Source: Zea mays
Taxonomy: Eukaryota > Streptophyta > Magnoliopsida > Poales > Poaceae
Assembly (NCBI RefSeq): GCF_902167145.1
Contig: NC_050101.1
Location: 135,748,990-135,812,989 of the forward strand
Length of the DNA: 64,000 nt
Reading direction: 5' to 3'
Shown here: in pieces, positions 16,098-49,195 of the stretch
Numbering within the stretch: the first letter of the stretch is position 1
How the letters are laid out: each line of letters opens with the position of its first letter
Translations under genes and position numbers: made by a program
Notes under the pieces: model-generated
Told to the model about the DNA's origin: nothing
Seen by the model: the letters and a program-made list of their open reading frames with translations, nothing else
Database searches by the model: none

Positions 16098-17343
16098 CGA
16101 GAGCACCTAGAGGGGGGGGGGTTAATAGGTGATCCTGTGAAACTTGAAAACTTAAGCCACAAAACTTGGTTAATTGTTAGCACAATAATTGCCAAGTGGC
16201 TAGAGAGGAGTCAAAACACAATAACCACGAGAAATCAATCACAGAGATGACACGATGGTTATCCCGTGGTTCGGCCAAGACCAACGCTTGCCTACTCCAC
16301 GTTGTGGCGTCCCAACGGACGAGGGTTGCAATCAACCCCTCTCAAGAGGTCCAAAGACCCACTTGAATACCACGATGTTTTGCTTGCTTTTTCTCAATCC
16401 CGTTTGCGAGGAATCTCCACAACTTGGAGCCTCTCGCCCTTACACTTGAAATTCACAAAGAAGCACGGAGCAAGGGAGGGATTAGCAACGCACTCAAGAC
16501 AAGAAATCACAGCAACACCACGCACACAAGTCGCAACAAGAGCTCACAACACAACTCAAAGAGTTCACTACTCAACTAGAGCTCTAATTGCTATCACAAA
16601 GAATCAAAGGCGCAGAATCGTTGTCTTGGTGCTTAGGAATGTTGTAGGAATGCTTGGTGTTGTCCTCCATGCGCCTAGGGGTCCCTTTTATAGCCCCAAG
16701 GCAGCTAGGAGCCGTTGAGAGCAATCTAGGAAGGCTGATCTTGCCTTCTGTCGACTGGCGCACCGGACAGTCCGGTGCACACCGGACACTGTCCGGTGCC
16801 CGATTTCTTTCCTTAAGCGGCGCAGCCGACCGTTGGCAGCCAGAGAGCCGTTGGCGCACCGGACATGTCCGGTGCACACCGGACAGTCCGGTGCCCCCTT
16901 CTAGCCATTGGCTCGACCACGTGTCCCGCGCAGATCGCGCGGCCGACCGTTGGCCCGGCCGACCGTTGGCTCATCGGACAGTCCGGTGCACACCGGACAG
17001 TCCGGTGAATTATAGTCGTACGCCGCCGGTGAATTCCCGAGAGCGGCCACTTCGCTCGAGCCAGCCTGGCGCACCGGACACTGTCCGGTGCACCACCGGA
17101 CAGTCCGGTGCTCCCAGACTCAGCAGAGTCTTGGCTGCTCGAGCCAAGACATTTCCAATTAGATTTTTCCTGTTTCCAGCACTTAGACACAACACATTAG
17201 TCCATAAAATAATGTACTAAGTCTGAGAAACATACCTTTATCCTTGATTTGTACTTTGTCCACCTTTTTACACTTAGGCACTTGTGTTGGGCACTAAATC
17301 ACCAAAATACTTAGAAATGGCCCAAGGGCACATTTCCCTTTCA
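16098..17343 (-). repeat. 3' LTR of Sirevirus B
   Basis: It pairs with 23775-25019. Its outer tip reads CG instead of TG on the plus strand (16098-16099), a point change. It carries a TATA-like CTATAAAAGG (minus, about 16696-16686) and many CCGGACAGTCCGG-type palindromes at 16755-17115, typical of Sirevirus LTRs. Confidence 0.95.
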
Positions 17344-23774: not shown

Positions 23775-25019
23775 TGAGAGCACCTAGAGGGGGGGGGGTG
23801 AATAGGTGATCCTGTGAAACTTGAAAACTTAAGCCACAAAACTTGGTTAATTGTTAGCACAATAATTGCCAAGTGGCTAGAGAGGAGTCAAAACACAATA
23901 ACCACGAGAAATCAATCACAGAGATGACACGATGGTTATCCCGTGGTTCGGCCAAGACCAACGCTTGCCTACTCCACGTTGTGGCGTCCCAACGGACGAG
24001 GGTTGCAATCAACCCCTCTCAAGCGGTCCAAAGACCCACTTGAATACCACGGTGTTTTGCTTGCTTTTTCTCAATCCCGTTTGCGAGGAATCTCCACAAC
24101 TTGGAGCCTCTCGCCCTTACACTTGAAATTCACAAAGAAGCACGGAGCAAGGGAGGGATTAGCAACGCACTCAAGACAAGAAATCACAGCAACACCACGC
24201 ACACAAGTCGCAACAAGAGCTCACAACACAACTCAAAGAGTTCACTACTCAACTAGAGCTCTAATTGCTATCACAAAGAATCAAAGGCGCAGAATCGTTG
24301 TCTTGGTGCTTAGGAATGTTGTAGGAATGCTTGGTGTTGTCCTCCATGCGCCTAGGGGTCCCTTTTATAGCCCCAAGGCAGCTAGGAGCCGTTGAGAGCA
24401 ATCTAGGAAGGCTGATCTTGCCTTCTGTCGACTGGCGCACCGGACAGTCCGGTGCACACTGGACACTGTCCGGTGCCCGATTTCTTTCCTTAAGCGGCGC
24501 AGCCGACCGTTGGCAGCCAGAGAGCCGTCGGCGCACCGGACATGTCCGGTGCATACCGGACAGTCCGGTGCCCCCTTCTAGCCGTTGGCTCGGCCACGTG
24601 TCCCGCGCAGATCGCGCGGCCGACCGTTGGCCCGACCGACGTTGGCTCACCGGACAGTCCGGTGCACACCGGACAGTCCGGTGAATTATAGCCGTACGTC
24701 GCCGGTGAATTCCCGAGAGCGGCCACTTCGCTCGAGCCAGCCTGGCGCACCGGACACTGTCCGGTGCACCACCGGACAGTCCGGTGCTCCCAGACTCAGC
24801 AGAGTCTTGGCTGCTCGAGCCAAGACATTTCCAATTGGATTTTTCCTGTTTCCAGCACTTAGACACAACACATTAGTCCATAAAATAATGTACTAAGTCT
24901 GAGAAACATACCTTTATCTTTGATTTGTACTTTGTCCACCTTTTTACACTTAGGCACTTGTGTTGGGCACTAAATCACCAAAATACTTAGAAATGGCCCA
25001 AGGGCACATTTCCCTTTCA
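23775..25019 (-). repeat. 5' LTR of Sirevirus B
   Basis: This 1245-bp LTR has TG...CA ends, a TATA-like motif near 24370 and the same palindrome series as the 3' LTR. It pairs with 16098-17343 at about 98.7% identity by visual comparison. Confidence 0.95.
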
Positions 25020-27697
25020 CACACAAGAACATCATGACGACTGACAGGCCACTCGAGCTCCTACACATGGACCTTTTCGGCCCGATAGCTTACATAAGCA
25101 TCGGCGGGAGTAAGTACTGTCTAGTTATTGTGGATGATTATTCTCGCTTCACTTGGGTGTTCTTTTTGTAGGAAAAATCTCATACCCAAGAGACCTTAAA
25201 GGGATTCTTGAGACGGGCTCAAAACGAGTTCGGCTTAAGGATCAAGAAAATTAGAAGCGACAACGGGATAGAGTTCAAGAACTCTCAAATTGAAGGCTTC
25301 CTTGAGGAGGAGGGCATCAAGCATGAGTTCTCTTCTCCCTACACGCCACAACAAAATGGTGTAGTGGAGAGGAAGAATAGAACTCTATTGGACATGGCAA
25401 GAACCATGCTTGATGAGTACAAGACTTTGGATCGGTTTTGGGCCGAGGCGGTCAACACCGCTTGCTACGCCATCAACCGGTTGTATCTACACCAAATCCT
25501 CAAGAAGACATCATATGAACTCCTAACCAGTAAAAAGCCCAATGTTTCATATTTTAGAGTCTTTGGTAGCAAATGTTTTATTCTTGTTAAAAGAGGAAGA
25601 AAATCTAAAATTGCTCCTAAGACTGTAGAAGGCTTTTTGCTAGGATATGATTCAAACACAAGGGCATATAGAGTCTTTAACAAGTCCTCCGGACTAGTTG
25701 AAGTTTCTTGTGACATTGTGTTTGATGAGACTAACGGCTCTCAAGTAGAGCAAGTTGATCTTGATGAGATAGGTGATGAAGAGGCTCCGTGCGTCGCACT
25801 AAGGAACATGTCCATTGGGGATGTGTGTCCTAAGGAATCCGAAGAGCCACCACATGCACAAGATCAACCATCTTCCTCTACACAAGCATCTCCACCAACT
25901 CAAGATGAGGATAAGGCTCAAAATGATGAAGGAGAAGATCAAGGAGTTGAGCCACCTCAAGAGGAGAGCAATGATCAAGGGGGAGATGCCCGTGATCAAG
26001 ATGAGGAAGATGAGCAAGTTCCAAATCCGCCACACCCAAGAGTCCACCAAGCAATCCAACGAGATCACCCCGTGAACACCATCCTCGGCGATATTCAAAA
26101 GGGGGTAACTACTCGATCTCGTGTTGCTCATTTCTGTGAACATTACTCTTTTGTTTCCTCTATTGAGCCACACAGGGTAGAGGAAGCACTACAAGATTTG
26201 GATTGGGTGGTGGCGATGCAAGAGGAGCTCAACAACTTCACTAGGAATGAGGTATGGCACTTAGTTCCATGTCCTAATCAAAATGTTGTAGGAACCAAGT
26301 GGGTCTTCCGCAACAAGCAAGATGAGCATGGTGTGGTGACAAGGAACAAAGCCCGACTTGTGGCCAAGGGTTATTCACAAGTCGAAGGTTTGGATTTTGG
26401 TGAAACCTATGCACCCGTAGCTAGGCTTGAGTCAATTCGCATATTACTTGCCTATGCTACTTACCATGGCTTCAAGCTTTATCAAATGGACGTGAAAAGT
26501 GCCTTCCTCAACGGACCAATCAAGGAAGAGGTCTATGTTGAGCAACCTCCCGGCTTTGAAGATAGTGAGTACCCTAACTATGTTTATAAACTCTCTAAGG
26601 CGCTTTATGGGCTCAAGCAAGCCCCAAGAGCATGGTATGAATGCCTAAGAGATTTCCTTATCACTAATGGCTTCAAAGTCGGAAAGGCCGATCCTACTTT
26701 ATTTACTAAAACTCTTGACAATGATTTGTTTGTATGCCAAATTTATGTTGATGATATTATATTTGGGTCTACTAACGAATCTACATGTGAGGAATTTAGT
26801 TGGATCATGACACAGAAATTCGAGATGTCGATGATGGGGGAGTTGAAGTACTTCTTGGGATTTCAAGTGAAGCAACTCCAAGAGGGCACCTTCATTAGCC
26901 AAACGAAGTATATTCAAGACATTCTAAACAAGTTTGGAATCAAGGATGCCAAGCCCATCAAGACACCCATGGGAACCAATGGGCATCTCGACCTCGACAC
27001 GGGAGGTAAATCCGTCGATCAAAAGGTATACCGGTCAATGATAGGCTCTTTACTCTATTTATGTGCATCTCGACCGGATATTATGCTTTCCGTATGCATG
27101 TGTGCAAGATTCCAAGCCAACCCTAAGGAAGCTCACCTTACGGCCATAAAACGAATCTTGAGATATTTAGTTTATACTCCTAAGTTTGGGCTTTGGTACC
27201 CTCGGGGATCCACATTTGATTTAATTGGTTATTCGGATGTCGATTGGGCGGGGTGTAAGATTAATAGAAAGAGCACATCGGGGACTTGCCAGTTCTTGGG
27301 AAGATCCTTGGTGTCTTGGGCTTCAAAGAAGCAAAATTCTGTAGCTCTTTCTACCGCCGAAGCCGAGTATATTGCCGCAGGTCATTGTTGCGCGCAACTA
27401 CTTTGGATGAGGCAAACCCTTAGGGACTATGGTTACAAATTAACCAAAGTTCCTCTTCTATGTGATAATGAGAGTGCAATCCGCATGGCGGATAATCCCG
27501 TTGAACATAGCCGCACTAAACACATAGTCATTCAGTATCATTTCTTAAGGGATCACCAACAAAAGGGAGATATCGAGATTGCATATATTAACACTAAGGA
27601 ACAATTAGCCGATATCTTTACCAAGCCACTAGATGAACAAACCTTTAACAAACTTAGGCATGAACTAAATATTCTTGATTCTCGCAATTTCTTTTGA

Positions 27698-32527: not shown

Positions 32528-32659
32528 TGTAAGGAAAAGGGACCCTAGCCCATTTGTCTAAGTGATTTTGGCGTTTGATGATTAACATAACCTTGTGGAC
32601 TAATATTTCCCAAGTGTTTGTGTGTTGTAGTTCATAGGATGCGAAGTGGATTAACCTGG
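32528..32659 (+). repeat. Copia E LTR, left piece
   Basis: The piece begins TGTAAGGAAAAGGGACCC, a start resembling other Sirevirus-like LTRs, and stops at the CCTGG target of element C. Confidence 0.6.
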
Positions 32660-33246
32660 TGTTGGGGTTGTGCTTCGGTGCGCCGAAGGTCTCACACGAA
32701 GAAGCAGCTTCGGCTGAAGTCGTCTCCAAGAGATGGCCGAAGGTCCCTTTTCATGGAGCTTCGGCGTTTTAAACCGACATAGAGATAGAATGACCTTTTT
32801 ATACATATAGGTCTGAGTCAATGCTGTAAACTTTCGCAAGGGACATAATTGTAATTTGTCACAGGCTGCGACCTGTGCCTATAAATAGATGAACAGTACC
32901 TCTGTACTGTTCACGTGAACCTGTCATTTGCTTTCACATCACGCTTGTATTTTTGCCTTCTGCAGGACCGAAGGTACATTTGTAATTCAAAGTCATTTAT
33001 ATTCATTAATACAAATAGAGATAATTCTATGACAATATTTAAATGTTTATTTCATATTCTATGGTTTATGTGAATGCTTCATTCTTCGTTGTTATGCTTA
33101 CGAAGGTATGTCCTTCGTAACCTTCGTCCGAGATGCTTTATATCCCGAAGGGATATATTGTTATGGAGGACGAAGGACCTTAACACTTAACATTTTTTGT
33201 GTTGCCTTGTTCTTAATTCTTAGCATTTGAGAACAAGTCCCCAACA
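32660..33246 (+). repeat. 5' LTR of element C
   Basis: It runs TGTTGGGGTTGTGC to AGTCCCCAACA, 587 bp. A TATA box CCTATAAATAGATG is at about 32878. I count seven CTTCGG/CCGAAG words. It is identical to the 3' LTR. Confidence 0.97.
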
Positions 33247-33264
33247 TTGGCGCCCACCTCCGGT
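33247..33264 (+). other. Primer-binding site of element C
   Basis: TTGGCGCCCACCTCCGG directly follows the LTR; TGGCGCC is a known gypsy PBS core. The same site, with one change (GTC for GCC), lies beside the LTR of fragment F at 46548-46532. Confidence 0.8.
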
Positions 33265-33290
33265 CAACTCACTTCCACCTTTCTGAGCTG

Positions 33291-36200
33291 ATGGCTTCGT
33301 TCAACACCCAAGCTGGAGCTGCTTCGGCTTCGAAGCTGGTGCTCCCGATAACAGGCGGTTCTTGCTCAGAGCCAGCTAACAAAAAGCAGAAGAAGGAGGC
33401 TCAGAGAAGAGTACAGCATGTTGGAGTGCAGGGACCCTTCATTAAGTCAAAATGGTCTCATATTCCGATTACCTTCTCTCAGGAAGATCTTCAGCTCAAG
33501 GACTATCCTCACAATGATGCTATGGTCATTTCCTGTGTGATCAAAGGGTTTCTGGTTCACAATGTCCTAGTTGACACAGGCAGTGCAGCTGACATTATAT
33601 TTGCCAAAGCCTTCAGACAGATGCAAGAGCCTGAAGACAAGATTCATGATGCTACGCACCCTCTTTGTGGCTTCGGAGGGCGGCAGATTGTGGCACTCGG
33701 GAAGATTACCATGCCGGTAACCTTCGGATTTGTTAATAACACAAGGACTGAGCAAATTGTGTTTGATATTGTTGACATGGAATACCCCTACAACGCCATC
33801 ATTGGTCGTGGTACCCTAAATGCTTTTGAAGCAATTCTTCACCCAGCTTATCTCTGCATGAAGATACCTTCGGACCAAGGGCCTATTGCTATTCATGGGA
33901 GTCAGGAAGCTGCCAGAAGGGCCGAAGGAAGCTGGACTGATTCCAAGGCAATCCATAATATAGATGGAGTTGAAGCTTGTGAACAGTACAAGTTCAGGAG
34001 GGAAAAAGCAGCTTCGGCTGATCAGCCGAAGCCCATGCTGCTGTGTGAGGATATAGCAGAGCAGAAGGTGCTATTGGGCTCGCAATTATCTGAAGATCAA
34101 GAGAAAACCTTGATAAGGTTTTTATTCAACAATAAAGATGTTTTTGCATGGTCAGCCAATGATCTTTGTGGAGTGAATCGGGATGTTATTGAACATTCGC
34201 TCAATATTGACCCATCCTTCAGACCCCGCAAGCAGAGGCTTCGGAAAATGTCTGATGACAAGGCCGAAGGGGCTCGCAACGAAGTAAAAAGACTCCTAAG
34301 TGCAGGAGTTATCAGAGAAGTGAAGTATCCAGAATGGCTAGCTAACACTGTTATGGTGAAGAAGGCCAATGGAAAGTGGAGAATGTGTATTGATTTCACA
34401 GATCTCAACAAGGCTTGTCCGAAGGATGAGTTCCTGTTGCCAAGGATAGACTCTTTAGTTGATGCAGCAGCTTCTTCGGAACTCATGAGTCTCCTGGATT
34501 GTTACTCAGGCTATCATCAAATCTGGATGAAAAAGGAGGATGAGCCGAAGACTAGTTTCATAACCCCAAGTGGTACATATTGCTATCTTCGGATGCCTGA
34601 GGGGCTTAAGAATGCTGGAGGGAGTTTCAGCAGGATGACTGCGAAGGTTCTCCAATCTCAGATAGGCAGAAATGTGTTGACCTATGTTGATGACATTATT
34701 GTAAAAAGCACGAAGCAAGAAGACCATATTGCTGATCTGCAGGAGACCTTCGCCAGCTTCAGACAAGCTGGTCTGAAGCTGAATCCAGAAAAATGTGTCT
34801 TCGGAGTAAAGAAGGGTAAGTTCCTTGGATGCTTGGTTTCAACAAAGGGAATTGAAGCTAATCCAAACAAAATCGAAGCTATACTTCGAATGGAGCCACC
34901 AACCACAAGAAAGGGGGCCCAAAGATTGACAGGAAGACTGGCATCTCTTAACAGATTTATATCCAGATCAGCAGAAAGAAATCTACCCTTCTTCGAGGTG
35001 CTAAAATCAGCTGAAGTCTTTCAATGGGGCCCAGCTCAACAAAAAGCTTTCGAAGAACTCAAGCAATACCTGATAGATCTAACAACATTAACTCCACCAA
35101 TGCCAGGGGCTCCTCTGTTGTTGTATGTGGCAGCTTCGCACTCAGCAGTAAGTGCGGCGCTTGTGCAGGAGAAGTTTGATGGACAAATCAAGAAGCAGGT
35201 CCCAGTATATTTTGTATCTGAGGTCCTTAGTGTCTCAAAGAAAAATTATACAGAACTGGAGAAGGTGTTGTATGCCGTTCTAATGGCATCTAGGAAGCTT
35301 CGGCATTATTTTCAGGCATATAATATTATTGTTCCTTCTTCGCAGCCGTTGAAAGATATCATGAGAAATAAAGAAGCTACTGGCCGAATTGGAAAATGGG
35401 CTGCGGAGCTTAATGAATTTTACATTGATTATGTGCACAGATCCTCGATCCAGTCTCAAGCATTGGCAGATTTTATTGCCGACTGGACGCCAGGGGCTCA
35501 GGGCGAAGAAGCAAATAAAGATGCCGAAGCATGGACAGTGTTTTGTGATGGCTCCTGGGGAACCTTCGGAGCAGGAGCAGCTGCTGTTTTGGTTTCACCG
35601 TCCAAGGTTAAAACTTGCTATGCAGCAAGACTGGACTTCAGCTGCACAAATAATATTGCTGAGTACGAAGCCTTGCTCCTGGGCCTTCGGAAACTAAAGG
35701 CGATGGGGATCAGGAGGGCGATCCTTAAAACTGATTCTCAGATTGTTTCGGGTCATATTGACAAAAGTTGCAAGGCTAAAGACCCGAAGCTTGAAAAATA
35801 CCTAGACACAGTCCGAAGGATCGAAGCTTCTTTCGAAGGATTTTCTGTTAAGAACATCCCTCGAGGGCAAAATGAACATGCTGATTTGTTAGCCAGGTCT
35901 GCAGCACAGGGGCTGCCGCTACCTTCGGATGTATTCTTCGAAACAATAAAGGCACCTTCAGTGGAGTTACTTGAAAGAGCAGTTCTTACTATTTCTCCTG
36001 TGTACAGTGAAGATTGGAGAACTGAGATAATTTCTTACCTTCAGGGCAACTTTCTATCAGATGACGAAGCTTATAATAAAAGAATAGAGGCAAGAGCTCG
36101 TCCGTATATCATTATAGAAGGGGAGTTATACAAGCATGGAGTTTGTGCCCCGCTGCTCAAGTGCTTGTCTAGAGCCGAAGGTATAGAGTTGATGAAGGAG

Positions 36201-37244
36201 ATACATGCAGGCCTTTGTGGATCCCACATCGGATCCAGGCCGTTACTTGGAAAAGTGTTCCGTCAAGGATTTTATTGGCCGAAGGCAGCTTCGGATGCAG
36301 CTGAGTTAGTTCAAAAGTGCGAAGGTTGTCAGAAATGTGCAAGAGATCAAAAACAACCTTCGTCTTTGACACAGCTAATACAACCCATCTGGCCATTGCA
36401 AAGGTGGGGCCTCGATTTGCTGGGCCCATTACCACCGGCTCAAGGCAATCTGAAATATGTTGTAGTTGCTGTGGAATATTTTTCCAAGTGGATTGAGGCG
36501 AAGCCATTAGCTACAATAACTTCGGCCACTGTCCAAAAATTTTTCTGGCAGAATATTGTCTGTCGCTTCGGAGTGCCGAAGGCTATAACTGTAGATAATG
36601 GAACACAATTTGACTCCGAAGAATTCAGAAATTTTTGTGATCAAATTGGCACGAAGATCCACTTTGCGTCAGTCAGGCACCCGGAGTCGAATGGGCTTGT
36701 TGAAAGGGCCAACGGCATCATAATGACAGGAATAATGAAGCTAATCTTTAATCAACCAAGGGGAAAGTGGCCAGATCAGCTTACCAAAGTGGTATGGAGC
36801 CATAACACAACAACATCAAGATCTACAGGCTTTACCCCATTTAAGTTGTTATTTGGTGACGAAGCAATAACCCCGGAAGAAGCCAAAGCTGGATCAATAA
36901 GAGTGGTAGCTTCGGCAGAATCAGGTCCCGAAGATACTTGTCTCGTGGAAAAAGATGCCTTAGAAGGGATCAGGCTTCAGGCCGTGGAGAATATCAATAA
37001 GTACCAGGCTGAAACAGTTAAATGGCGAGATAGAAAGGTCCGGCTAAAAAATATTGAGCCAGGACACTTGGTGCTTCGGAGAGTGGCCAATCCGGATACA
37101 GTGGGCAAATTGCAACTGAAATGGGAAGGGCCTTTCTTAGTAGCATCTTCGTCAAGGCCTGGTTCGTACAGACTGAAGGACATGGATGGCAATGAAATTC
37201 CAAGATCTTGGAATGCGGATGAGCTTCGGCGGTTTTATGTATAA
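33291..37244 (+). CDS. pol: Element C polyprotein: protease, RT, RNaseH, integrase (no gag)
   Basis: An intact 1317-codon frame begins with ATG 45 bp after the LTR. Protease VLVDTGSAADIIF is at residues 92-104. RT includes ANGKWRMCIDFTDLNKACP (about 360-380), LLDCYSGYHQI and the catalytic YVDDIIVKS (about 465). A second RNaseH-like domain has FCDGSWG and LKTDSQIV (about 750-825). Integrase has an HHCC finger (HAGLCGSHIG...CEGCQKC, about 965-1015) and core motifs LDLLGPLPP, VDNGTQFDSEEF and HPESNGLVERANG (about 1040-1150). The first 60 residues look like the linker that normally follows gag, so gag has been deleted. All catalytic motifs are present. For replication it would need gag from another element. 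Confidence 0.92.
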   Translation: MASFNTQAGAASASKLVLPITGGSCSEPANKKQKKEAQRRVQHVGVQGPFIKSKWSHIPITFSQEDLQLKDYPHNDAMVISCVIKGFLVHNVLVDTGSAADIIFAKAFRQMQEPEDKIHDATHPLCGFGGRQIVALGKITMPVTFGFVNNTRTEQIVFDIVDMEYPYNAIIGRGTLNAFEAILHPAYLCMKIPSDQGPIAIHGSQEAARRAEGSWTDSKAIHNIDGVEACEQYKFRREKAASADQPKPMLLCEDIAEQKVLLGSQLSEDQEKTLIRFLFNNKDVFAWSANDLCGVNRDVIEHSLNIDPSFRPRKQRLRKMSDDKAEGARNEVKRLLSAGVIREVKYPEWLANTVMVKKANGKWRMCIDFTDLNKACPKDEFLLPRIDSLVDAAASSELMSLLDCYSGYHQIWMKKEDEPKTSFITPSGTYCYLRMPEGLKNAGGSFSRMTAKVLQSQIGRNVLTYVDDIIVKSTKQEDHIADLQETFASFRQAGLKLNPEKCVFGVKKGKFLGCLVSTKGIEANPNKIEAILRMEPPTTRKGAQRLTGRLASLNRFISRSAERNLPFFEVLKSAEVFQWGPAQQKAFEELKQYLIDLTTLTPPMPGAPLLLYVAASHSAVSAALVQEKFDGQIKKQVPVYFVSEVLSVSKKNYTELEKVLYAVLMASRKLRHYFQAYNIIVPSSQPLKDIMRNKEATGRIGKWAAELNEFYIDYVHRSSIQSQALADFIADWTPGAQGEEANKDAEAWTVFCDGSWGTFGAGAAAVLVSPSKVKTCYAARLDFSCTNNIAEYEALLLGLRKLKAMGIRRAILKTDSQIVSGHIDKSCKAKDPKLEKYLDTVRRIEASFEGFSVKNIPRGQNEHADLLARSAAQGLPLPSDVFFETIKAPSVELLERAVLTISPVYSEDWRTEIISYLQGNFLSDDEAYNKRIEARARPYIIIEGELYKHGVCAPLLKCLSRAEGIELMKEIHAGLCGSHIGSRPLLGKVFRQGFYWPKAASDAAELVQKCEGCQKCARDQKQPSSLTQLIQPIWPLQRWGLDLLGPLPPAQGNLKYVVVAVEYFSKWIEAKPLATITSATVQKFFWQNIVCRFGVPKAITVDNGTQFDSEEFRNFCDQIGTKIHFASVRHPESNGLVERANGIIMTGIMKLIFNQPRGKWPDQLTKVVWSHNTTTSRSTGFTPFKLLFGDEAITPEEAKAGSIRVVASAESGPEDTCLVEKDALEGIRLQAVENINKYQAETVKWRDRKVRLKNIEPGHLVLRRVANPDTVGKLQLKWEGPFLVASSSRPGSYRLKDMDGNEIPRSWNADELRRFYV

Positions 37245-37429
37245 CTCGATGTAATTTTGACTTTTCTTTTCTTTTTCATGGCACCCTTTTCCTTTCTAAA
37301 AGGGGGAGAAAGGTTTTTAATGGGGCCATCTTATGTAATTTCCTTTTTAGTTTTATAAGAGCAAAATCCCCCAAAGAATGTAAATGTAAAAGCTGAGAGT
37401 GCACCATCGAGTGCCGAAACTAAAAAAGA

Positions 37430-37612
37430 GAAGAAGCTCCAAAGACGTCCCTAAGGGGATGCAGAGCTCACAGCGAAAAGTCAACGCTGATTCCGCCGAA
37501 AGTAAAAGGCGAAGAAGCTCCAAAGTCGTTCCTAAGGGAATGCAGAGCTTATACCGTCTAAGTAAAGGACGAAGAAGCTCCAAAGACGTCCCTAGGGGAA
37601 TGCAGAGCTGAC
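37430..37612 (+). repeat. Three imperfect copies of a GAAGAAGCTCC-GATGCAGAGCT unit
   Basis: The unit GAAGAAGCTCCAAAGACGTC...ATGCAGAGCT begins at 37430, 37511 and 37571, with spacings of 81 and 60 bp. Confidence 0.8.
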
Positions 37613-37834
37613 GTGTGTTTGCTCCTAAAAAAAATGATGGATGAGTGTGGCTTCGGACATACGCTTCGGACATTCATTTGCACATTGCATCATGGCATTT
37701 GCATGCATAAGCATTCATTCATAGCATTTGTGTTCCTAAATGGTTGCTTCGGCACAGAGAAAAGTTTCGGATAAATGGTTTGTTATGTAAAAGAAAGGTT
37801 TCGAAGAAGTGGTTTTTTATGAATCGTTGTGTAT

Positions 37835-38060
37835 AAGAGTAGCAGCCTTTTATGTTTTGTTATGTAAAAGCTTCGGCAGAAAGAAGAAGTAGTCTTTTAT
37901 GTCTTGCTATGTAAAAGCTTCGGCAGAAGGAAGAAGTAGTCTTTTATGTCTTGCTATGTAAAAGCTTCGGCAGAAGGAAGAAGTAGTCTTTTATGTTTTG
38001 CTATGTAAAAGCTTCGGCAGAAAGAAGAAGTAGTTTTTTATGTTTTGCTATGTGAAGAAA
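37835..38060 (+). repeat. 47-bp tandem repeat in element C
   Basis: The word CTTCGGCAGAA recurs at 37871, 37918, 37965 and 38012, each exactly 47 bp apart, with TTTTATGT..TGCTATGTAAAAG between. There are about 4.5 copies, 90% or more alike by eye. Confidence 0.9.
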
Positions 38061-38341
38061 AGCTTTGGCAAAAAGAGGAAGCGACCGTTTAGGCTTCGTT
38101 GTGTACGAAAAGAAGGGAAGGTGTTTTTTCGCCTTCGGCTCAAAATACTGATTTCGTCCACATCAAAGCGACTCAATCGAAGGGTAAGGATATATTACAA
38201 GGTATGTACAAAGTTCCTTGAGAACAGTTCAATTGTATTTACAAAACTTGTTACAAAAGTATCCTGAGTTTTTTTTCCTATAGTACATTTCTACTGATCT
38301 TCATTAAGCTTCAGCTTCGGCGACAGTTTCGGCGACATAAC

Positions 38342-41236
38342 TTAGGCATCATCTTCACCTTCGTCATCCTACATAAATCAAAGAATCGTGAGTAAAAATC
38401 AAGTGCAAAGAAAAAGGTAAGTACGAAGTATTATCTCTTACTGGTTCAAGATGACTTCGTGCTTCATCTCCAGCCTTCTCTCGCCCGCCCTTTGTCCATA
38501 CCATTTTTATAAATCTATTGGAGATACTTCGGGCGAGGTCGGGCATATCATCCAGAATTGATGAAGATAAGGTGAAATTGGGCCTGTTGACAACCTTTCC
38601 ATGTTCGCAGCCGGCTTTCAGAAATGCAGCAGCAGTCCCTCGAGAAGCCACCCAGGCACAGAAGTCACCATGCCCAGCTATGACTTCGTCGAGCTCGTCA
38701 ATTTCCCCCTCAATGTGTTCGAAGGTTTGTGGTAGGTCTTCAGCTGAGGGGGTAAATTTTTCGCTGCTAGCTCCAACTGAATGAAAAATCTTTCTTAGTC
38801 GCTGAATGCACTTGTTGCTAAATTCTAGGCATTTTTCTTGAAGATTTGTCAGTAGTTTTCTCAAATCCGAATTTTGCTGAGCTTCGGCTTCAAGTTTTGC
38901 ATTGAGATCTTGTTTCTCTTGTTCGAACTGCTCAGACTGGCGGAGAAGCTTCGTGTTCAGTTCTAATATTTTTGCTTCAGCTTCCGCCAGTAAACCTTCG
39001 GCTGCCTGGAGTTCAAAGTTCTTTTTCTCAAAAGCATCTGATTGCTCCTTTATTTTGTTTTCCAAATTTCCAATTATAACTTCATGCTTTTTATCTTCAA
39101 GATCTTGCTGCATTTGCAAGGCTTTGCTCAATAGCATACTCTACACAAACACAACCTTCATCAGACATGTTTTTGTTAGGAGCAATAAAAGTTAGGGGAC
39201 AAGTCATCTACCTTGAAGTTGGAGTAAAACAAACTACCAACGACATGCTGTCGTCGGTAGCGGCTGATATCTGCTTCTAGCTTCGGAAATCCAATACTCT
39301 TGGACAGAGTACTAATAACTCTGGCCCCTGTCTGGTCCCGAATACACTCTAATTTCTCATCATCAACACCTCCGAAGAGGAGTGCCCCAGGTTTGTATCC
39401 GCAGGATTGGGCATACTCTTTAAGCTCTTCTATTTCAGCTTTTGTTAGATGTTCTCCAACTAAGTTTTGGAACGCGAAGGTTTCGTTTTTTGAAGCTTCG
39501 TCAGCAATTTCTTTTCCTTTCTTTGACGCTACGGTCACAGTTTCTCCGGCAGCAGTAGCAGTTTCTTCTGCAGCCATGTCTAGCAGCATTTGGTCAATAT
39601 GTTCAATTGTGCTCTCTAAATTAAAATCTTCAGCTGAGGTAACTTTGGCGGCTGCGGCCTCCGAAGGTGCAATTTCAATATCTGCTCCCTCTGCAGCCGC
39701 TCGTGTTTTTTGGGCCGAAGCTCTTGGCGGCGTTTTGTCAATTACCTCTGTCACGGTAATGATTCTTTGTCTCTTTGCCTTGATTGTTTTCCTTGATTTC
39801 TCGGGCTCTTTGTCCTTCTGAAAAAACTTTGTCAGTTGAGGACCCAGTGGACTTAGCTTTGCAGGTAAGGATTCAGTCATTACCTTCAGAATTTCCCCAA
39901 CAACAGCAGCAGAAGGCGATGCGGGGGTTTCTTCTGCTTCGGATATTTGTTGCTTCGGAGAAGAAGTTTTCTTTTTCTTCTGAATTTTCTTCTTTATTGG
40001 TTCTTTTTCACCTTCATCTAAGGCTTCAGTTGCCCTTTTCCTTTTTTGGCCCCTGGCACCTTTGTTCAGATCTTCGTAGTCTGGGTATTCGAAGCCCAGG
40101 GCGTCCAATACTCGATTCAGCCTTCGTTTTGGACGGCTGCCGAAGGCTGCAGTCATCAATTGATCTTCTTTCTTGGAATAATTACCAAGTATTTCGTTGC
40201 ACATCACTTCAATCGTATCTAGCCACTCTTGGCAAGGAGTTTTAAAGAATTTCTTAAATTTGAAGTAGTAAGGCAAGCGTACAAGTTCACCCTTTTTCTT
40301 TTCCCCCTCCAGCTTCGGCATTTCCCACTCTTTTACACTAGGGAAAACTTTGAAAGCCAAGAATTCCTGGACCAGGTCCCTTGTACTGATATTTTCTGCA
40401 ATTATTTTGAATTCATACATTGCTTTTTGAGTTGGACCCTCTGGTAACATGTGGCACTGGGGGCGGGTTTCTCCGAAGGTCAGTTCCAGTGGGCTTTGCA
40501 CAAGCTTCTCTTTATCATCATCAACCTTAACATAGAACCATTCCGATTTCCACCCTGCTGCCCATTTGCTTCGGTAGCTGATCACAGGACACTTTGTAGT
40601 TTTCCGATAAGCAAAATTATAGCAACCAAAGTTGTCATGTAATCCATCCTTTCTAGCCTTTGTCTGATAGTGCAGTTCATGAACTCGGCAAAAGCTGTCC
40701 GCAAACGGTTCCACCGCCTGGCTTCGGAGTGCCCAAATATAAACACTAAGCCTAACGATAGCGTTAGGGGTTAGCTGGTGAAAATAGATTCCAAAATTAT
40801 TCAATATCTCTGCAATAATCCCATGAAGGGGGAATCTCAACCCAGCCTTTAAGAAGCTTTTAAAAATAACAATTTCATCTTTCTCCGGCTTTGGGGTAGT
40901 CTCTTCTCCTCCGAAGCGTAGTAGCTTCTTTTGATTTTCAGTAAAATAGCCTGACTTTACCATCTTGGACAAATCAGCCTTCGAAACAGTAGATTTCCCG
41001 AAGTCCAAATGGCTGGGTTTGCTTGGTGTGGCAAGGTGATAATCATCTTCGGAGTCTGTTTCCTCAGCTTCTTCTCCTTCTGCTTCAGCGATTGCTTGTT
41101 CTGCATCATCAATAGGAATCTTTTCCGAAATCACTAGCCCGGACCGTTGCATGGCTTCGGAGATAGGGACGGTCTCCGAAGCTTCAGTTTCCTCCCCCTC
41201 GCGTTCAATCCTAGCGGTAGAACGGACTCTGGCCAT
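38342..41236 (-). CDS. Element C antisense gene, plant transposon-protein (PF04195-like), three exons
   Basis: The gene lies opposite to pol. Exon 1 is 41236-39212 (675 codons, ATG start), exon 2 is 39140-38442 (233 codons) and exon 3 is 38368-38342 (8 codons plus TAA). Introns are 71 and 73 bp with GTAGAT/TGTAG and GTAAGA/TGTAG borders; all junctions are phase 0. The predicted protein is about 916 aa. The N-terminus is acidic. Residues about 140-300 carry RFPLHGIIAEILNNFG, HQLTPNAIVR and GWKSEWFYVK, matching the family Pfam calls putative gypsy-type transposon (PF04195). A Lys-rich nuclear-signal-like stretch (KKKIQKKKK) lies near 410, and exon 2 encodes a coiled-coil. Function is unknown. 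It is intact in a very young element, which suggests recent selection or recent amplification. Confidence 0.8.
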
Positions 41237-41671
41237 TTAACTATGAACTTGTGAAACTTTAATACTTTTTTCTCCGAAGCAGGTTTCAAGATGGAGCTTC
41301 GTTCAATTCTGACAAACAAGCTTCGGCGATGGTTAAAAATTTTGGCAGCAAAACAGTGCAAATAGCAATGAATGCTGTGGTAACTTCACAACTACTTGTC
41401 AGTTTATATAGTGCTGCAGGTAAGAAGGCGAAGCGGCGGAATTGTTACACCAGGCGCGCAGTAACTTGTACCCGCTGCGCAGTGGACCGCAAGGATTAAA
41501 CAGTAACTCTGCAAGGTGGGACCGACACGCGCTCGGAAGTCGGATCGTTTCTCCGCAACGAGCTCAGGGAAGGTGTTTTTTGGACCTTCGGCTTCCCGAA
41601 GCTGAAGAGGTTTTTTTTTTCACGGGTCAAGCTCGTTACGAAGAACGATCTAGCACCGCGAAAGGGGCTAC
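41237..41671 (-). promoter_or_regulatory. Promoter region of the element C antisense gene
   Basis: On the minus strand CACTATATAAACTGAC (plus about 41413-41400) is a strong TATA box about 165 bp before the antisense ATG. It lies outside the LTR, so the antisense gene appears to have its own promoter. The right end holds the PPT, GCGAAAGGGGCTAC at 41658-41671, next to the 3' LTR. Confidence 0.65.
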
Positions 41672-42258
41672 TGTTGGGGTTGTGCTTCGGTGCGCCGAAG
41701 GTCTCACACGAAGAAGCAGCTTCGGCTGAAGTCGTCTCCAAGAGATGGCCGAAGGTCCCTTTTCATGGAGCTTCGGCGTTTTAAACCGACATAGAGATAG
41801 AATGACCTTTTTATACATATAGGTCTGAGTCAATGCTGTAAACTTTCGCAAGGGACATAATTGTAATTTGTCACAGGCTGCGACCTGTGCCTATAAATAG
41901 ATGAACAGTACCTCTGTACTGTTCACGTGAACCTGTCATTTGCTTTCACATCACGCTTGTATTTTTGCCTTCTGCAGGACCGAAGGTACATTTGTAATTC
42001 AAAGTCATTTATATTCATTAATACAAATAGAGATAATTCTATGACAATATTTAAATGTTTATTTCATATTCTATGGTTTATGTGAATGCTTCATTCTTCG
42101 TTGTTATGCTTACGAAGGTATGTCCTTCGTAACCTTCGTCCGAGATGCTTTATATCCCGAAGGGATATATTGTTATGGAGGACGAAGGACCTTAACACTT
42201 AACATTTTTTGTGTTGCCTTGTTCTTAATTCTTAGCATTTGAGAACAAGTCCCCAACA
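41672..42258 (+). repeat. 3' LTR of element C
   Basis: 587 bp, identical to 32660-33246 in my line-by-line comparison, and followed by the CCTGG target duplication. Confidence 0.97.
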
Positions 42259-42263
42259 CCTGG

Positions 42264-43754
42264 GGCTCTAAGGATGCAACACCTCAAATAAGACATTATA
42301 AGACCTATATAAGATATTACAAAGTAATATTTGAGACACGTTATACATGCTAAGAGTCCAACACATCAAGAAGTAGAAGTTGGATGCAAAGCTACAAAAC
42401 AAAAGTGAAGTTGACAAAGTTGAGAGGAAGGGCTGACTGAATTGGAAGTGTTTCACAAAATCAAATCTACTCAAAGTGACATGGATTCAACTCTGAGATG
42501 TAGATAATTTTATAAGCTTTCCAAAAAGTCCAAGATCATCAAAATAGGAGTTCGGAGCTAAAAGTTATGCCCACAATACAAAGTTGGAATTGCTGAAAAA
42601 ACCGTAGCACCATATGGGATATCCGATGCACCAAATTTGCTCAAAATGGTATGGATTCAACTCTGGGATGTATAGAATTTCATAAGCTTTTCAAAAAGTA
42701 CAAGATCATCGAAATTAGAGTTCGGAGTTAAAAGTTATGGCCAAAATACGACAAGCGAACATGGACTGTCCGGTGCGCCATCTTCGAAAGCTCCAACGAC
42801 TACCTTTAATGGCTAGTACACGTGGCATGTCCGGTGCACCACCGGACAGTCCGATGCACCTATCTAGTGCATCACAGAAAGTTGCATAACAACTTTCCAA
42901 TGACTATATTTAAGTTGGGGCCTATATATACTTCACCCATTCGACCATTTGGAGGTGTGAGAGCTCAAGCAACATAACAAGACATATTGTAGACATTTCC
43001 AAGTGCTCATACACCCAAGTGCTTAATAGAATCACTCGGTGATTAGCGTAGGTACTTTGCGAAGTGCTTAGGTTAGTTAGACCGCTGATGCGCTTGCTCT
43101 AAGTGAATCCTAGTTAGTTGAGTGAGTTTAGAAAAACCACACAACCCCTCGGCTCTTGTATGAGTCGTTGTAATTGTACCAAGTGGGGCGATATTCTTGT
43201 GAGACCGTGACAATCAAGTTTGTGTCACAGCCGCCACCGTGTACCGAAGGGAACGAGGCTCGTGGTGTTTCGGCCGGAAGCTCGATAGTGGAGACGGCGG
43301 GGAGCGTCCGAGAGGAGCCGAAAGTGGAGCACCACTTGCGCGTGGAGAAGGCCCGCAACTCTCTACGGAGTTACTCGACCGAGGTGCATGGCCCTCGCGT
43401 GGGCTACCCTTTGCAAAGGTACACCAACGAGGATTAGTCGGAACCTTGCGTGGTTCTGGATACCTAGGTAAAAATATCGACGTCATCCACGAGAGTTTGC
43501 ATCTTTACCTTGCTCTTTACTTTTCGCATTTATACTAAGTATTTAAGTTTCAATCTCGCCTTTCTAGTTAGATTATTTAGGATTGAAACTTAGCCTTTGC
43601 GGTAGAGATAGCAACACTTAGACAAAACCTAGTTTGCACATTCTAGATTGTTTATTTGCATAGGTTTTGCTCTAGGGATTTAATTGTGGCCTAGTTTAGA
43701 GATAGTTTTTAAAAGTCCTAATTCACCCTGTCTTAGGCATCACCGTTTCCTACA
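42264..43754 (+). repeat. Copia E LTR, right piece
   Basis: It contains a tandem duplication of about 180 bp, each copy with ATGGATTCAACTCTG and GAGTTCGGAG (42482 and 42651). Two CCGGACAGTCC-type words lie at 42765-42855, and a TATA box CCTATATATAC at about 42922. It ends ...TTTCCTACA just before AG and the PBS. Confidence 0.75.
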
Positions 43755-43756
43755 AG

Positions 43757-43770
43757 TGGTATCAGAGCCC
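43757..43770 (+). other. Primer-binding site of copia E
   Basis: TGGTATCAGAGCCC matches the initiator-Met tRNA site and lies two bases past the LTR end. Confidence 0.85.
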
Positions 43771-43836
43771 GGTATGGCTCATTTGAAACGTTTTAGCTTC
43801 ACCGCTAATTGAGCCGATGCTTTTTAGAGGACGGGG

Positions 43837-45357
43837 ATGGATACCCATAGGCCACCACACTTCGACGACACTAACTTCCAATATTATAGTGCTAGAATGG
43901 CTTGTTACCTAGAAGCGGTTGATCTAGGTGTTTGGAGAGTCACTCGTGATGGGTTGAAACACCTAAGAATCCCGAGAAGCTCACCACGAGTGACGAAAAA
44001 GAAATTCATTTGAATGCTAGAGCCAAAATTTGCTTCTATGAATCTCTTAGCATGGAAATTTTCATTCAAGTATTTACCTTGAAAACTGCTAATGATATTT
44101 GGCTAAAATTGCATGAGCTCCATGACGACACATCTAATGTCCGTGAGCAGAAACATTGTCTAGTCTTGAATGAGTATAATTCTTTTTCTATGAAAGAAAA
44201 TGAGCTTGTTAGAGAAATGTATTCACACTTAAATCTTGTGATTAATGAGCTCAACTCTATTGGAATTAATAAGCTAGATGACACAGATATTGTGAGGAAG
44301 ATCATCTCTCTTCTACCACAACAAAGATATGGGAGCATCATCACCATCCTTCACAACCTCGAGGATTTGAGCCAAATGACCTGACGAATGTGATTGGAAA
44401 AATTGAGGCATTTGAGATGTCGCGGAAAATGAGTCAACAAGAGGAGCCTACTTCTTCAAAGCCATATGCTTTTGCATGCGATGAACACAAAAATATGAAA
44501 GGCAAGAAGAAGGCTCCAAGCTCAAGTGAAGAATAGGAAGCATAACTTGATGATGATGATGATGATGATGATGAAGAAGAAGAAGAAGATGATCAACCCT
44601 CAACACCATCCTCCTAGGATGAGGATACAGTCCGACGCGTTGGGAAGGTAATGGAGACGATTCGCAAGATTAATCTAATGGGTGTGCCCCTGCAGGTCGA
44701 GGATCTTCTCTTTAACATTGACAGGAAAAAGCAAAGAAAGGGAGGATGCTTCACATGCGGGTAGAAGGGCCACTTCAGGGACAACTATCCAAATATGGCC
44801 GAACCCACAAAGAGGAGGAGCAAAGGTAAGACGCTTACAAGTGTCAAAACTTGGAATGGCTCTTCAAGCGAAGATGAACCTCCAAGGACAAGCAGCCACC
44901 GCTCTTCATCACGCTCTCACGGTCATCACACAAATGCCTTATGGCAAGAGGTAAAACAAGTATCCCATTCTCTAGTGATGATAGTGATGATGAATGTGAT
45001 GATGAGGGAAAACCCTCCTTAGATGAACTTACGCATGCCATTAAATTTTTTGAGGATGTCTGCACTAAACAAAAGGCTCAACATAAAACATTGAAAAATA
45101 AGTTGATTAGCTCTCAAAATGATTATAAATGTTTGCTAGAAAAATCTAAAACATTTGCAAATTTGAATTGTGAGCTAACAACTAAAATTGAGCAATTAGA
45201 GTCTAATGCTCCATCATCAACTACCGATGATAGCCTTATAAAAAAGAATGAAAACTTATGGCTAAGTGAGCTAGCTCTCAAGAAGCTATTGAAAACTTGC
45301 TAGAGAATATGGAAATTCTTAGCATACACAATAATGAGCTAACTACTAAGCTAGAAT
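43837..45357 (+). pseudogene. Copia E gag, broken
   Basis: It starts MDTHRPPHFDDTNFQYYSAR, the usual opening of UBN2-type copia gag. After a frame break near 43990 it continues ICFYESLSMEIFIQVFTLKTA...YGSIITILHNLEDLSQ (44010-44384). A run of GAT/GAA codons (acidic tract) is at 44555-44595. The zinc knuckle at about 44745 reads GGCFTCG, stop, KGHFRDN, so it is destroyed. A coiled-coil tail follows to about 45357, where the element ends abruptly. It is non-functional. Confidence 0.75.
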
Positions 45358-46375: not shown

Positions 46376-46548
46376 CTTGTGGTTCTAGGCTGACGACTTT
46401 CCTCTATTGGTTCCTTGCCTCCCCTGATGAGAGCTTCTTCCCCTTGGTTGGGATCCAAGGTCCGGAGGATAGAGCCAGTCGCCACTATCTTCTTTGGCAG
46501 CATGATATATGTTGTTGTGGTCGTGGAATCACCGGAGGTGGACGCCAA

Positions 46549-47250
46549 TGTTGGACACTTATTTTCAATTGCTACATGGCATCAAAAACTAGGCAACACA
46601 AGTTAAATAATATGGACCTTTGTCCTGAAGGTATCACTTTTTCGAAGTGTTAGCTTGAGGACAAAGGTCTTTAAAAGGAGATGCAAACAAAATAGTGTTG
46701 AATGAGATGACAATAGACAATAAAGAGTAAAACCCATCTCTTGTGCCTTAGCATTATTTATTCCATCTTCCTTCGTATTATACAAGTGTACAAACACACC
46801 TTCGCTTTTTTTTTGCACAAGATAGCTCGAAGGTACTTCGAAGGCTGAGCGCAATAAAGCTTAAGACCCTCCCAATGTGCCTTTATGTGGGCATTGTTCA
46901 CCTATTTATTGGAAAGTTGAACAGATTCGTAGAAAATTACAAACATGTCCATAAAATTTACATACATGATTTTACAAAAGATGCAGGGACATCACTATTT
47001 TTTCTCTTTCTTTCTTGATGCACAAGTCTTGGACTTCTTCTCCTTCGTCGCTTTGCATCCGAATCTTTCGCCATGCTGAGGTTAGTGACTTCGGCTCGCA
47101 CCTTCGTTGCTTACATGTGTGGTCGAAGCTTCTGTCCATCACTTCGGTCGAAGGTCAGCTTCGTCTGTCCTTCACTTTATGTTCGAAACACATTAGTTTA
47201 CACCGAAATAGTGGCGTCTTAAAGATATTCAGCAAGCTAGATACCCAACA
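46549..47250 (-). repeat. 5' LTR of fragment F
   Basis: 702 bp; minus strand TGTTGGGTATCTAGC to AAGTGTCCAACA. The right flank is CACAC; the other target copy has been lost. Confidence 0.7.
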
Positions 47251-47898
47251 CACACAACACGCGGCTAATCTATACTGCCATGCGTCAAGAGTAGGTGATT
47301 GGAAAATTGGCTAAATATCCAAATGATTACGGAAGAAAAAATGAATGGGCCGGCGATGTGTTGACACTTCAGTTTTTGTTTGAAAAAAATATATACGTAA
47401 GCCATATTTGTCACATCATGTTAGATGGAACCTTTATTTTTTGTTAACCCGAATACCACGATTGGCAGCTGTTTTTTTTCCTTCACGAAAAACAATTGTG
47501 GGGATTAGGCCACGGTGGGAATGACTTGATGAGTTGAAGTTGAACAACGTGGAAATGTATAAATGACATGGTCAGACCATATAATGGTTTACAAACATTT
47601 TCACTTGTGGTCCACCGGCACCAATCCCCCCCTATTTTGCAAACCAACGGTCAAAATCGGCGAGGAAAAAAAATGAAGTTCATAGGGCACCTAATTCCTA
47701 GTTGATTATTGAGGCTCAACCACCATTTAAATTAGTGTCAGAGATTTTAATATGCCTTAGCTTATTGTTTGATTAAATGTGGATCCTCCAATGGTGACAA
47801 AAATGACATAGCGATCACATATTCTACGGGCCGGCTAGCTAGCATCTAAACAGCCTATAAAACTCCCCGCGTCCCAGACAAGACGAGCAGCAACAGCC
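47251..47898 (+). promoter_or_regulatory. Upstream region and TATA box of the peroxidase gene
   Basis: A TATA-like CCTATAAAACT lies at about 47853-47863, about 45 bp before the ATG, predicting a very short 5' UTR. The rest is AT-rich with no coding signal; its left edge is the LTR of fragment F. Confidence 0.6.
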
Positions 47899-49195
47899 AT
47901 GACGACGACGAAGCGGCACTGCTTGCGCTTCACCACCGTCCTGGCGACGACGCTTCTCTCCGCCACCGCCGCCTGCCTCGACGTCGGCTTCTACGACAGG
48001 ACATGCCCCACTGCCGAGACCATCGTGCAGCAGACCGTGGCGGCCGCGTTCAGGAACAACTCCGGCGTCGCTCCGGCGCTGATCCGCATGCACTTCCATG
48101 ACTGCTTTGTCAGGGTAATTAAGCTCACGCATGCATGTGGCTAGAAGACATGCTGTTTTTTTTTCCCTCTCCACACGAGCGAGTGACTGTACGTACGCGC
48201 GCGGGCTCTAAACTCCTTGCTTGCTGCAGGGCTGCGATGGCTCGGTGCTGATCGACACGGTAGGCAACCTGACGGCGGAGAAGGACGCGCCACCCAACAA
48301 CCCCAGCCTCCGGTTCTTCGACGTGGTCGACCGTGCCAAGGCGTCACTGGAGGCTCAGTGCCCCGGCGTGGTCTCCTGCGCCGACGTGCTCGCCTTCGCG
48401 GCCAGGGACAGCGTCGTGCTCTCCGGTGGCCTCGGCTACCAGGTGCCGGCCGGACGCCGTGACGGGCGGATATCCAATGACACCGAAGCCCTCAACAACC
48501 TGCCTCCGCCGTTCTTCAACGCCACCGAGCTGGCAGACAGGTTCGCCTCCAAGAACCTCACTATCGAGGACCTGGTCGTGCTCTCCGGCGCGCACACCAT
48601 CGGCGTCTCGCACTGCAGCGGCTTCGCCGGCCCGACAGACCTGAACGGCCCCGTTGACCGGCTCTACAACTTCAGCTCGCCTGACGGGGTAGGGGCATCG
48701 TCTGTCACCTCGCTCTCTGCAAAACCTTGAATGCGAAAAAAAGATGACCCCCGGTTATTACTTACCATGCATTGCTGTGGTGTACAGATTGACCCGACGC
48801 TGAGCAAAGCCTACGCATTTCTTCTCAAGAGCATCTGCCCGGCCAACACCAGCCAGTTCTTCCCGAACACGACGGTGTTCATGGACCTCATCACGCCGGA
48901 AAGGTTTGACAACAAGTACTACGTCGGCCTGACCAACAACCTGGGCCTCTTCAAGTCAGACGTGGCGCTGCTGACCAACGCGACGATGAAGGCCCTGGTC
49001 GACTCCTTCGTGCGCAGCGAGGCGACTTTCAGGACCAAGTTTGCCAGGTCCATGATCAAGATGGGGCAGATCGAGGTGCTGACGGGGACGCAGGGCGAGA
49101 TCAGGCGCAACTGCAGGGTCATCAACCCCGTTAGTGCCACCGATGATGTCGTCCTCGCCCGCCCATCAGGATTCACTGGAGTGGCTGCGAGCTAG
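47899..49195 (+). CDS. Class III secretory heme peroxidase, three exons
   Basis: The exons are 47899-48114, 48230-48688 and 48788-49195, with GT-AG introns of 115 and 99 bp, all phase 0, giving 360 aa. Residues 1-26 form a hydrophobic secretion signal. The distal heme site RMHFHDCFVRGCDGSVL (about 62-78) has the catalytic Arg and His; the proximal site DLVVLSGAHTIGVSHC (about 190-205) has the heme-ligand His. All eight disulfide cysteines are present (DRTC, HDC, GC, QC, SC, SHC, SIC, RNC). Several NxS/T sites suggest glycosylation. Such enzymes use hydrogen peroxide to oxidise phenolics in the cell wall or vacuole (lignin, suberin, defence). The grass pattern is often four exons; here exons 2 and 3 of that pattern seem fused. 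It looks functional. Confidence 0.95.

What the first reader, a model, noticed from the sequence alone, without database searches (positions are those of the whole stretch)
38342..41671. Intact spliced gene antisense to a very young gypsy element, with its own TATA box
Element C has identical LTRs, yet carries on the opposite strand a three-exon gene of about 916 codons, open across all exons, with clean phase-0 GT-AG introns and a TATA box outside the LTR. Antisense introns survive retrotransposition because they are not spliced from the sense genomic RNA. The protein belongs to a family known mainly from transposon annotation (PF04195-like), and its role is not established. Possible roles include nuclear targeting, gag replacement or silencing escape.
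Basis: partly seen in the sequence, partly recalled or inferred. Interest (0 to 1): 0.8.

Follow-up and report, generated by a model that had tools for sequence, protein, structure and literature searches.

The report
Spliced backwards gene in maize-type retrotransposon
A jumping element, probably of the abundant maize family Cinful, carries on its reverse strand a split gene for a large protein; genes of this kind are already known from this lineage, and what looks new here is comparative evidence that the gene is cut into exons and kept that way in many relatives.

Summary
Element 32660-42258 has identical 587-bp LTRs, a CCTGG target duplication, pol but no recognisable gag. On the minus strand between pol and the 3' LTR lies a three-exon, phase-0, GT-AG gene model of exactly 916 codons (41236-38342). 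PF04195 (TRP28) is at residues 123-188, and TATATAAA lies 166 bases upstream of the ATG, outside the LTR. The kind is in print: Vicient 2025 reports antisense TRP28 ORFs in 97% of young Retand clusters and lists a gag-less maize cluster ('Zea mays 1') with 587-bp LTRs and an internal region of 8,365 bp (here 8,425). Reviews report that Grande's antisense gene23 has its own promoter and a nuclear product. Cinful (pol) and Zeon (gag) are described as interdependent, so 'gag replacement' is unnecessary. New here: splice-border evidence. In 104 of 105 exon-1 relatives carrying the border motif (134 held) the next residue is Val (GTN), and identity falls from 0.88 to 0.26. At the exon-2 donor: 110 of 116 (120 held), 0.88 to 0.46. 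Before exon 2, 42 of 43 readable relatives are compatible with an NAG acceptor. So the TRP28 and coiled-coil-like frames look like exons of one gene. Transcription, splicing and function remain untested.

The parts
32660..33246 (+). 5' LTR, 587 bp
   Evidence: identical to 41672-42258
41672..42258 (+). 3' LTR, 587 bp
   Evidence: identical to 5' LTR
32655..32659 (.). target-site duplication CCTGG, left copy (right copy 42259-42263)
   Evidence: read from sequence
33247..33258 (+). likely primer-binding site next to the 5' LTR
   Evidence: position only, by inference
33231..37244 (+). pol reading frame (stop to stop; first ATG 33291): DTG protease-like motif, RT, RNase H, second RNase H, integrase; no gag found
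   Evidence: Pfam hits; DTG at residue 115, YVDD at 485; no CCHC zinc-knuckle pattern in any of six frames of 33247-41671
37847..38053 (.). tandem array, 47-bp unit, 4.4 copies
39212..41236 (-). antisense gene exon 1 (675 codons)
   Evidence: relatives
40673..40870 (-). PF04195 Transposase_28 (TRP28) domain, residues 123-188
   Evidence: matched by 28 of 28 members of alignment A1, the window's own included
39141..39211 (-). intron 1, 71 bp, GT-AG, phase 0
   Evidence: border evidence in relatives
38442..39140 (-). antisense gene exon 2 (233 codons), coiled-coil-like in its first part
   Evidence: only weak matches to coiled-coil families, below their cut-offs; no coiled-coil predictor was run
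38369..38441 (-). intron 2, 73 bp, GT-AG, phase 0
38342..38368 (-). antisense gene exon 3, acidic tail DDEGEDDA and stop
41403..41410 (-). TATATAAA, candidate TATA box of the antisense gene
41660..41668 (+). likely polypurine tract GAAAGGGGC before the 3' LTR
   Evidence: read from sequence, by inference

Best explanation
This is a young, gag-less Ty3/gypsy element of the Retand (Tat) lineage, most likely the maize family Cinful. It carries the lineage's characteristic antisense accessory gene in an intact, intron-containing form. Shown here: one open three-exon frame, a TRP28 domain, and splice borders kept in relatives. Inferred: RNA polymerase II starts just downstream of the TATA box, which lies 261 bases inside the 3' LTR, and reads back towards pol; two short introns are removed; and the 916-residue product (TRP28-containing N-terminal half, basic middle with NLS-like runs, coiled-coil-like exon 2, acidic tail) enters the nucleus. 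There it most likely acts in trans as a regulatory or accessory factor of the element, as proposed for Grande GENE23. Because the gene lies opposite to the genomic RNA, its introns are not recognised in that RNA and pass intact through each round of copying. Gag would be supplied by partner elements (Zeon type).
For: Structure. The order RT, RNase H, second RNase H, integrase is that described for Ogre and Retand. The published cluster 'Zea mays 1' has LTR 587, internal 8,365, no GAG, TRP28 yes, one tandem array. Cinful-1 is a named Retand element; Cinful is listed at 9,568 bp in one paper, ours is 9,599. Cinful codes pol and Zeon gag. Conservation: in an 81-sequence alignment the blocks of residues 151-250 and 326-375 keep the majority residue in 0.90-0.96 of rows, and the last block (676-686, the intron read-through) in 0.45. 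Splice borders: 104 of 105, 110 of 116, 42 of 43. Grande gene23 is reported to be transcribed from its own promoter with a nuclear product (a review).
Against: No RNA evidence could be looked at, so promoter use and splicing are inferred. The family name Cinful rests on structure and sizes, not on a sequence match; one paper gives Cinful an LTR of 653 bp and another a total of 8.5 kb, neither equal to ours, and Vicient 2025 does not say which family 'Zea mays 1' is. That paper lists the protease as absent in 'Zea mays 1', whereas a DTG motif is present here (Pfam found no protease domain). 29 of 134 exon-1 relatives lack the border motif and were left out: many end early, a few run on in another way; 1 of 105 has Glu at the donor. 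6 of 116 exon-2 relatives read Ile or Ala at the donor, so they probably lack GT there. The exon-2 border is less sharp (0.88 to 0.46). The listed relatives are only the best 120 per search. The structure model was too poor to speak to function (mean pLDDT 34).
Confidence: 0.75

Rival explanations
1. Two separate antisense genes: a 686-residue TRP28 protein ending inside the present intron 1, and a separate coiled-coil-like protein starting at the ATG that is the second codon of exon 2. No splicing is needed.
For: Each frame is long and open on its own; the published survey counts TRP28 and Smc-type ORFs separately. Exon-1 and exon-2 relatives were not seen on the same DNA outside the window.
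Against: The residues after K675 are not conserved (pairwise identity 0.26 against 0.88 before), yet the first of them is Val in 104 of 105, as a GT donor demands; just before the exon-2 codon AGT, 42 of 43 readable relatives have Gln or Lys, compatible with CAG or AAG acceptors. Separate proteins would not need this.
Confidence: 0.1
2. The antisense transcript matters as RNA: it pairs with the genomic RNA, feeds small-RNA silencing or limits copy number, and the protein is a passenger.
For: The review raises this for antisense ORFs. The whole gene overlaps the region that the genomic RNA must cross to reach the 3' LTR.
Against: Relatives keep 62-94% protein identity over exon 1 while the intron read-through is not kept; an RNA-only role would not favour amino acids and splice borders. 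Both roles may coexist.
Confidence: 0.12
3. The antisense protein replaces gag, since this element has none.
For: No gag domain by Pfam and no CCHC pattern in the internal region; basic stretches and a coiled-coil-like part could suit an RNA-binding structural protein.
Against: In the published table only 8 rows by my count lack GAG (the paper's text gives nine clusters) and only two lack TRP28, so most clusters have both. In the Cinful-Zeon family gag is coded by Zeon-type copies.
Confidence: 0.03

Closest known systems
Retand-lineage cluster 'Zea mays 1' (Vicient 2025, PMC11963269), most likely the Cinful family
   Same: LTR 587 bp; internal 8,425 here against 8,365; no gag; antisense TRP28 ORF between pol and 3' LTR; one tandem array.
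   Different: pol-to-LTR region 4,427 against 4,313 bp; DTG motif present here where the table lists no protease; the paper's text never uses the word intron.
Grande gene23 (maize; Gomez-Orte 2013, not held, known here through PMC7264820 and PMC11963269)
   Same: antisense gene between pol and 3' LTR; own promoter; proposed nuclear accessory factor.
   Different: Promoter and nuclear location are reported as measured for Grande, only predicted here; sequence relation not tested; exon structure of gene23 not seen.
Rice RIRE2 and Silene Retand antisense ORFs
   Same: same position and strand; Retand ORF4 carries transposase 28.
   Different: sequence and exon structure not compared.
Antisense genes of HTLV (HBZ, APH-2)
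   Same: antisense gene with a nuclear product, offered by Vicient as an analogy.
   Different: the HTLV antisense promoter is in the 3' LTR, whereas the TATA-like box here lies outside it; no homology claimed.
Known plant LTR elements with functional introns (Ogre, EVADE)
   Same: an intron inside a plant LTR element (passages of PMC12786077).
   Different: those introns are described in transcripts carrying gag-pol; here they lie in the antisense gene.

Membership tests
Retand lineage of plant Ty3/gypsy elements | RT-RH-second RH-INT order | tested here: met
   RVT_1 376-534, RNase H 599-730, RVT_3 773-891, H2C2 986-1036, rve 1055-1151; order described for Ogre and Retand
Retand lineage of plant Ty3/gypsy elements | RT groups with Retand in a tree | not tested
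   no reference RT sequences at hand
Retand lineage of plant Ty3/gypsy elements | long pol-3'LTR region (2,933-6,566 bp) | tested here: met
   4,427 bp, from pol stop 37244 to 41671
Retand lineage of plant Ty3/gypsy elements | antisense ORF with TRP28 (PF04195) | tested here: met
   E 6.8e-10
Retand lineage of plant Ty3/gypsy elements | 5-bp target duplication (usual in plant LTR elements) | tested here: met
   CCTGG on both sides
Cluster 'Zea mays 1' | LTR 587 bp and internal region within 2% of 8,365 | tested here: met
   587 and 8,425
Cluster 'Zea mays 1' | GAG absent | tested here: met
Cluster 'Zea mays 1' | AP domain listed as absent | tested here: inconclusive
   no Pfam protease hit, but DTG motif at residue 115
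Cinful family | sequence identity to a Cinful reference | not testable with these tools
   no maize sequence held; the genome search gave no answer
Cinful family | published sizes | tested here: inconclusive
   9,568 bp total but LTR 653 in PMC3091746; 8.5 kb and LTR 0.6 kb in PMC2412881; here 9,599 and 587
Grande gene23-type accessory gene | own promoter in the element's internal region | tested here: inconclusive
   TATA-like box only
Grande gene23-type accessory gene | nuclear protein | not testable with these tools
   basic, NLS-like runs at residues 398, 420, 488, 572 are suggestive only

The most novel reading that the evidence does not exclude
The antisense TRP28 ORFs and the antisense coiled-coil or SMC-like ORFs that a survey lists as separate in Retand elements are, at least in relatives of this element, exons of a single spliced gene kept under selection. 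The element would then be a two-gene, two-promoter system with converging transcription units, in which one strand must stay unspliced and the other must be spliced.
Probability: 0.6. Interest if true: 0.6.

Novelty: new member of a known kind. Interest (0 to 1): 0.42.

Why it matters
The role of antisense genes in Retand elements is an open question. A complete, spliced 916-residue reading gives the full protein to tag and test, where surveys that take single ORFs of 600 bp or more see two pieces and miss the last exon. It also gives RNA mappers exact antisense splice junctions to look for in a very abundant family (Cinful-zeon: 82,429 copies by homology in B73, if the family name is right). 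Reads spliced on the antisense strand cannot be mistaken for genomic DNA or sense RNA.

Tried and rejected
Structure: AlphaFold2 on the exon-1 frame with 81 sequences gave mean pLDDT 34.3 and pTM 0.24; no fold search was run on it because matches would be meaningless. No solved structure matches the profile of that alignment at E up to 1.

Other copies as DNA: none in the rest of the window (tblastn at E 1e-3 found only this gene); none confirmed in viral contigs or genome contigs, both asked with the exon-1 frame only. So dN/dS and conservation of the TATA box could not be tested. Metagenome contig scans were capped at zero and not tried.

Gag replacement was considered and rejected (see rivals). 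Coincidental ORF: rejected because of the relatives. The bacterial promoter and terminator scan is not relevant to a plant element.

Literature on introns in these antisense genes: the library searches and passage searches showed no description for Retand antisense ORFs. Gomez-Orte 2013 is not held and most subscription papers are missing, so a prior description cannot be excluded.

Full report
Element. Two LTRs of 587 bp (32660-33246, 41672-42258) are identical and flanked by CCTGG. With a substitution rate of 1.3e-8 per site and year (recalled, from no call) one difference would be expected per roughly 65,000 years, so the insertion is young. The internal region is 8,425 bp. The sense frame 33231-37244 holds RT, RNase H, a second RNase H and integrase, with DTG, YVDD and integrase motifs. 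The open frame begins inside the end of the LTR (first ATG 33291) and already reaches the DTG motif at residue 115, so there is hardly room for gag; Pfam finds none and no CCHC pattern exists in any frame of the internal region. A 47-bp tandem array lies at 37847-38053.

Antisense gene. [quoted passage not shown] PF04195 is at residues 123-188. The product has basic runs at 398, 420, 488 and 572, a coiled-coil-like start of exon 2 (only weak matches below the curated cut-offs; no dedicated predictor was run) and an acidic tail. TATATAAA at 41410-41403 leaves 166 bases to the ATG and 261 to the LTR. Its full 8 bases are unlikely by chance (0.1% of Markov copies), the core TATAAA is not (7.6%).

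Relatives. Three searches of 5.8 billion predicted proteins gave 328, 2,296 and 1,241 hits at E up to 1e-3, of which the best 120 each were listed; only the 7,994 candidates sharing most words were scored. Held in the end: 134 distinct exon-1 type and 120 exon-2 type proteins. The exon-1 type proteins are single-frame predictions that read through the exon end into the intron, and the exon-2 type likewise; that makes a test of the splice borders possible. Of 134 exon-1 relatives 105 contain the border motif; in 104 the next residue is Val (GTN), in one Glu (a looser motif on the first 120 gave 97 of 97 Val). After removing near-duplicates (57 left), mean pairwise identity is 0.88 over the last ten residues before the border and 0.26 over the ten residues after the Val. 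For exon 2, 116 of 120 carry the motif; 110 have Val, 5 Ile, 1 Ala; identity falls from 0.88 to 0.46 (45 non-redundant). Of the 120 exon-2 relatives 100 hold the exact start MLLSK; 57 begin there and 43 read in from upstream; of these 41 have Gln, one Lys and one His just before the first exon residue, Ser. Gln and Lys are compatible with CAG and AAG acceptors, though the third base is not seen; our own copy has TAG there. In 34 of 116 the exon-2 read-through is 20-29 residues long and ends in VG or AG, the ending that the intron-2 acceptor gives in our copy; the other 82 do not, so the intron-2 acceptor is untested in them. The 29 exon-1 relatives without the motif were dropped before the count; many end early, some run on differently. 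All 28 members of alignment A1, the window's own included, match PF04195. Exon-1 and exon-2 relatives were not seen on the same DNA, so their linkage is shown only in the window. The host species of the relatives is not known.

What is known. Vicient 2025 (PMC11963269; parts 1-3 of 5 read, plus passages) finds antisense coding regions in all and TRP28 in 97% of young Retand clusters, and lists 'Zea mays 1' with numbers close to ours. Vicient and Casacuberta 2020 (PMC7264820; parts 1-2 of 3 read, plus passages) review Grande gene23, with its own promoter and nuclear product, and call for a look at antisense and spliced transcripts. The word intron occurs in neither text. PMC8547701 (passages) describes Cinful as pol-coding and Zeon as gag-coding members of one family, a near-mutualism. 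PMC3091746 (passages) lists Cinful at 9,568 bp with an LTR of 653 and 2,181 ESTs: the total is close to ours, the LTR is not. PMC2412881 gives Cinful 8.5 kb and LTR 0.6 kb (passages). PMC12786077 (passages) says plant LTR elements generally lack introns, with Ogre and EVADE as exceptions. PMC6317226, PMC2774510 and PMC11728184 were read as passages only. Species: maize is inferred from the match to published maize clusters, not from a sequence comparison.

Reading. The finding is real and well described, but it is a member of a published kind. What this work adds is comparative evidence for conserved splicing, which merges the TRP28 frame and the coiled-coil-like frame into one gene. A nuclear accessory function is the best guess by analogy with Grande; no function is shown.

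Noticed in passing
window 47839-49195: Class III peroxidase-type gene in pieces: three neighbouring frames match PF00141; a likely host gene near the element.
   Followed up: partly
window 42259-44500: Element C sits next to a copia-type element: frame 43950-44384 matches Retrotran_gag_2. A 118-bp stretch is duplicated at 42462-42579 and 42632-42749, 86% identical.
   Followed up: partly
window 16099-17343 and 23776-25019: Another LTR-like direct pair, about 1,245 bp, 98.8% identical.
   Followed up: no
window 18174-19721 and 26099-27646: Long inverted pair, about 1.55 kb at 80% identity: related sequence in opposite orientation.
   Followed up: no
window 57919-58432: Tandem array with a period of roughly 55-58 bp (offsets in the self-comparison).
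   Followed up: no
window 46531-46626: 101-column stretch 75% alike to the end of the element's LTR and the adjoining primer-binding region, on the other strand.
   Followed up: no
proteins P0167, P0182, P0184, P0185, P0195, P0208: Relatives that read Ile or Ala instead of Val at the exon-2 donor, so the GT there seems lost or shifted.
   Followed up: no
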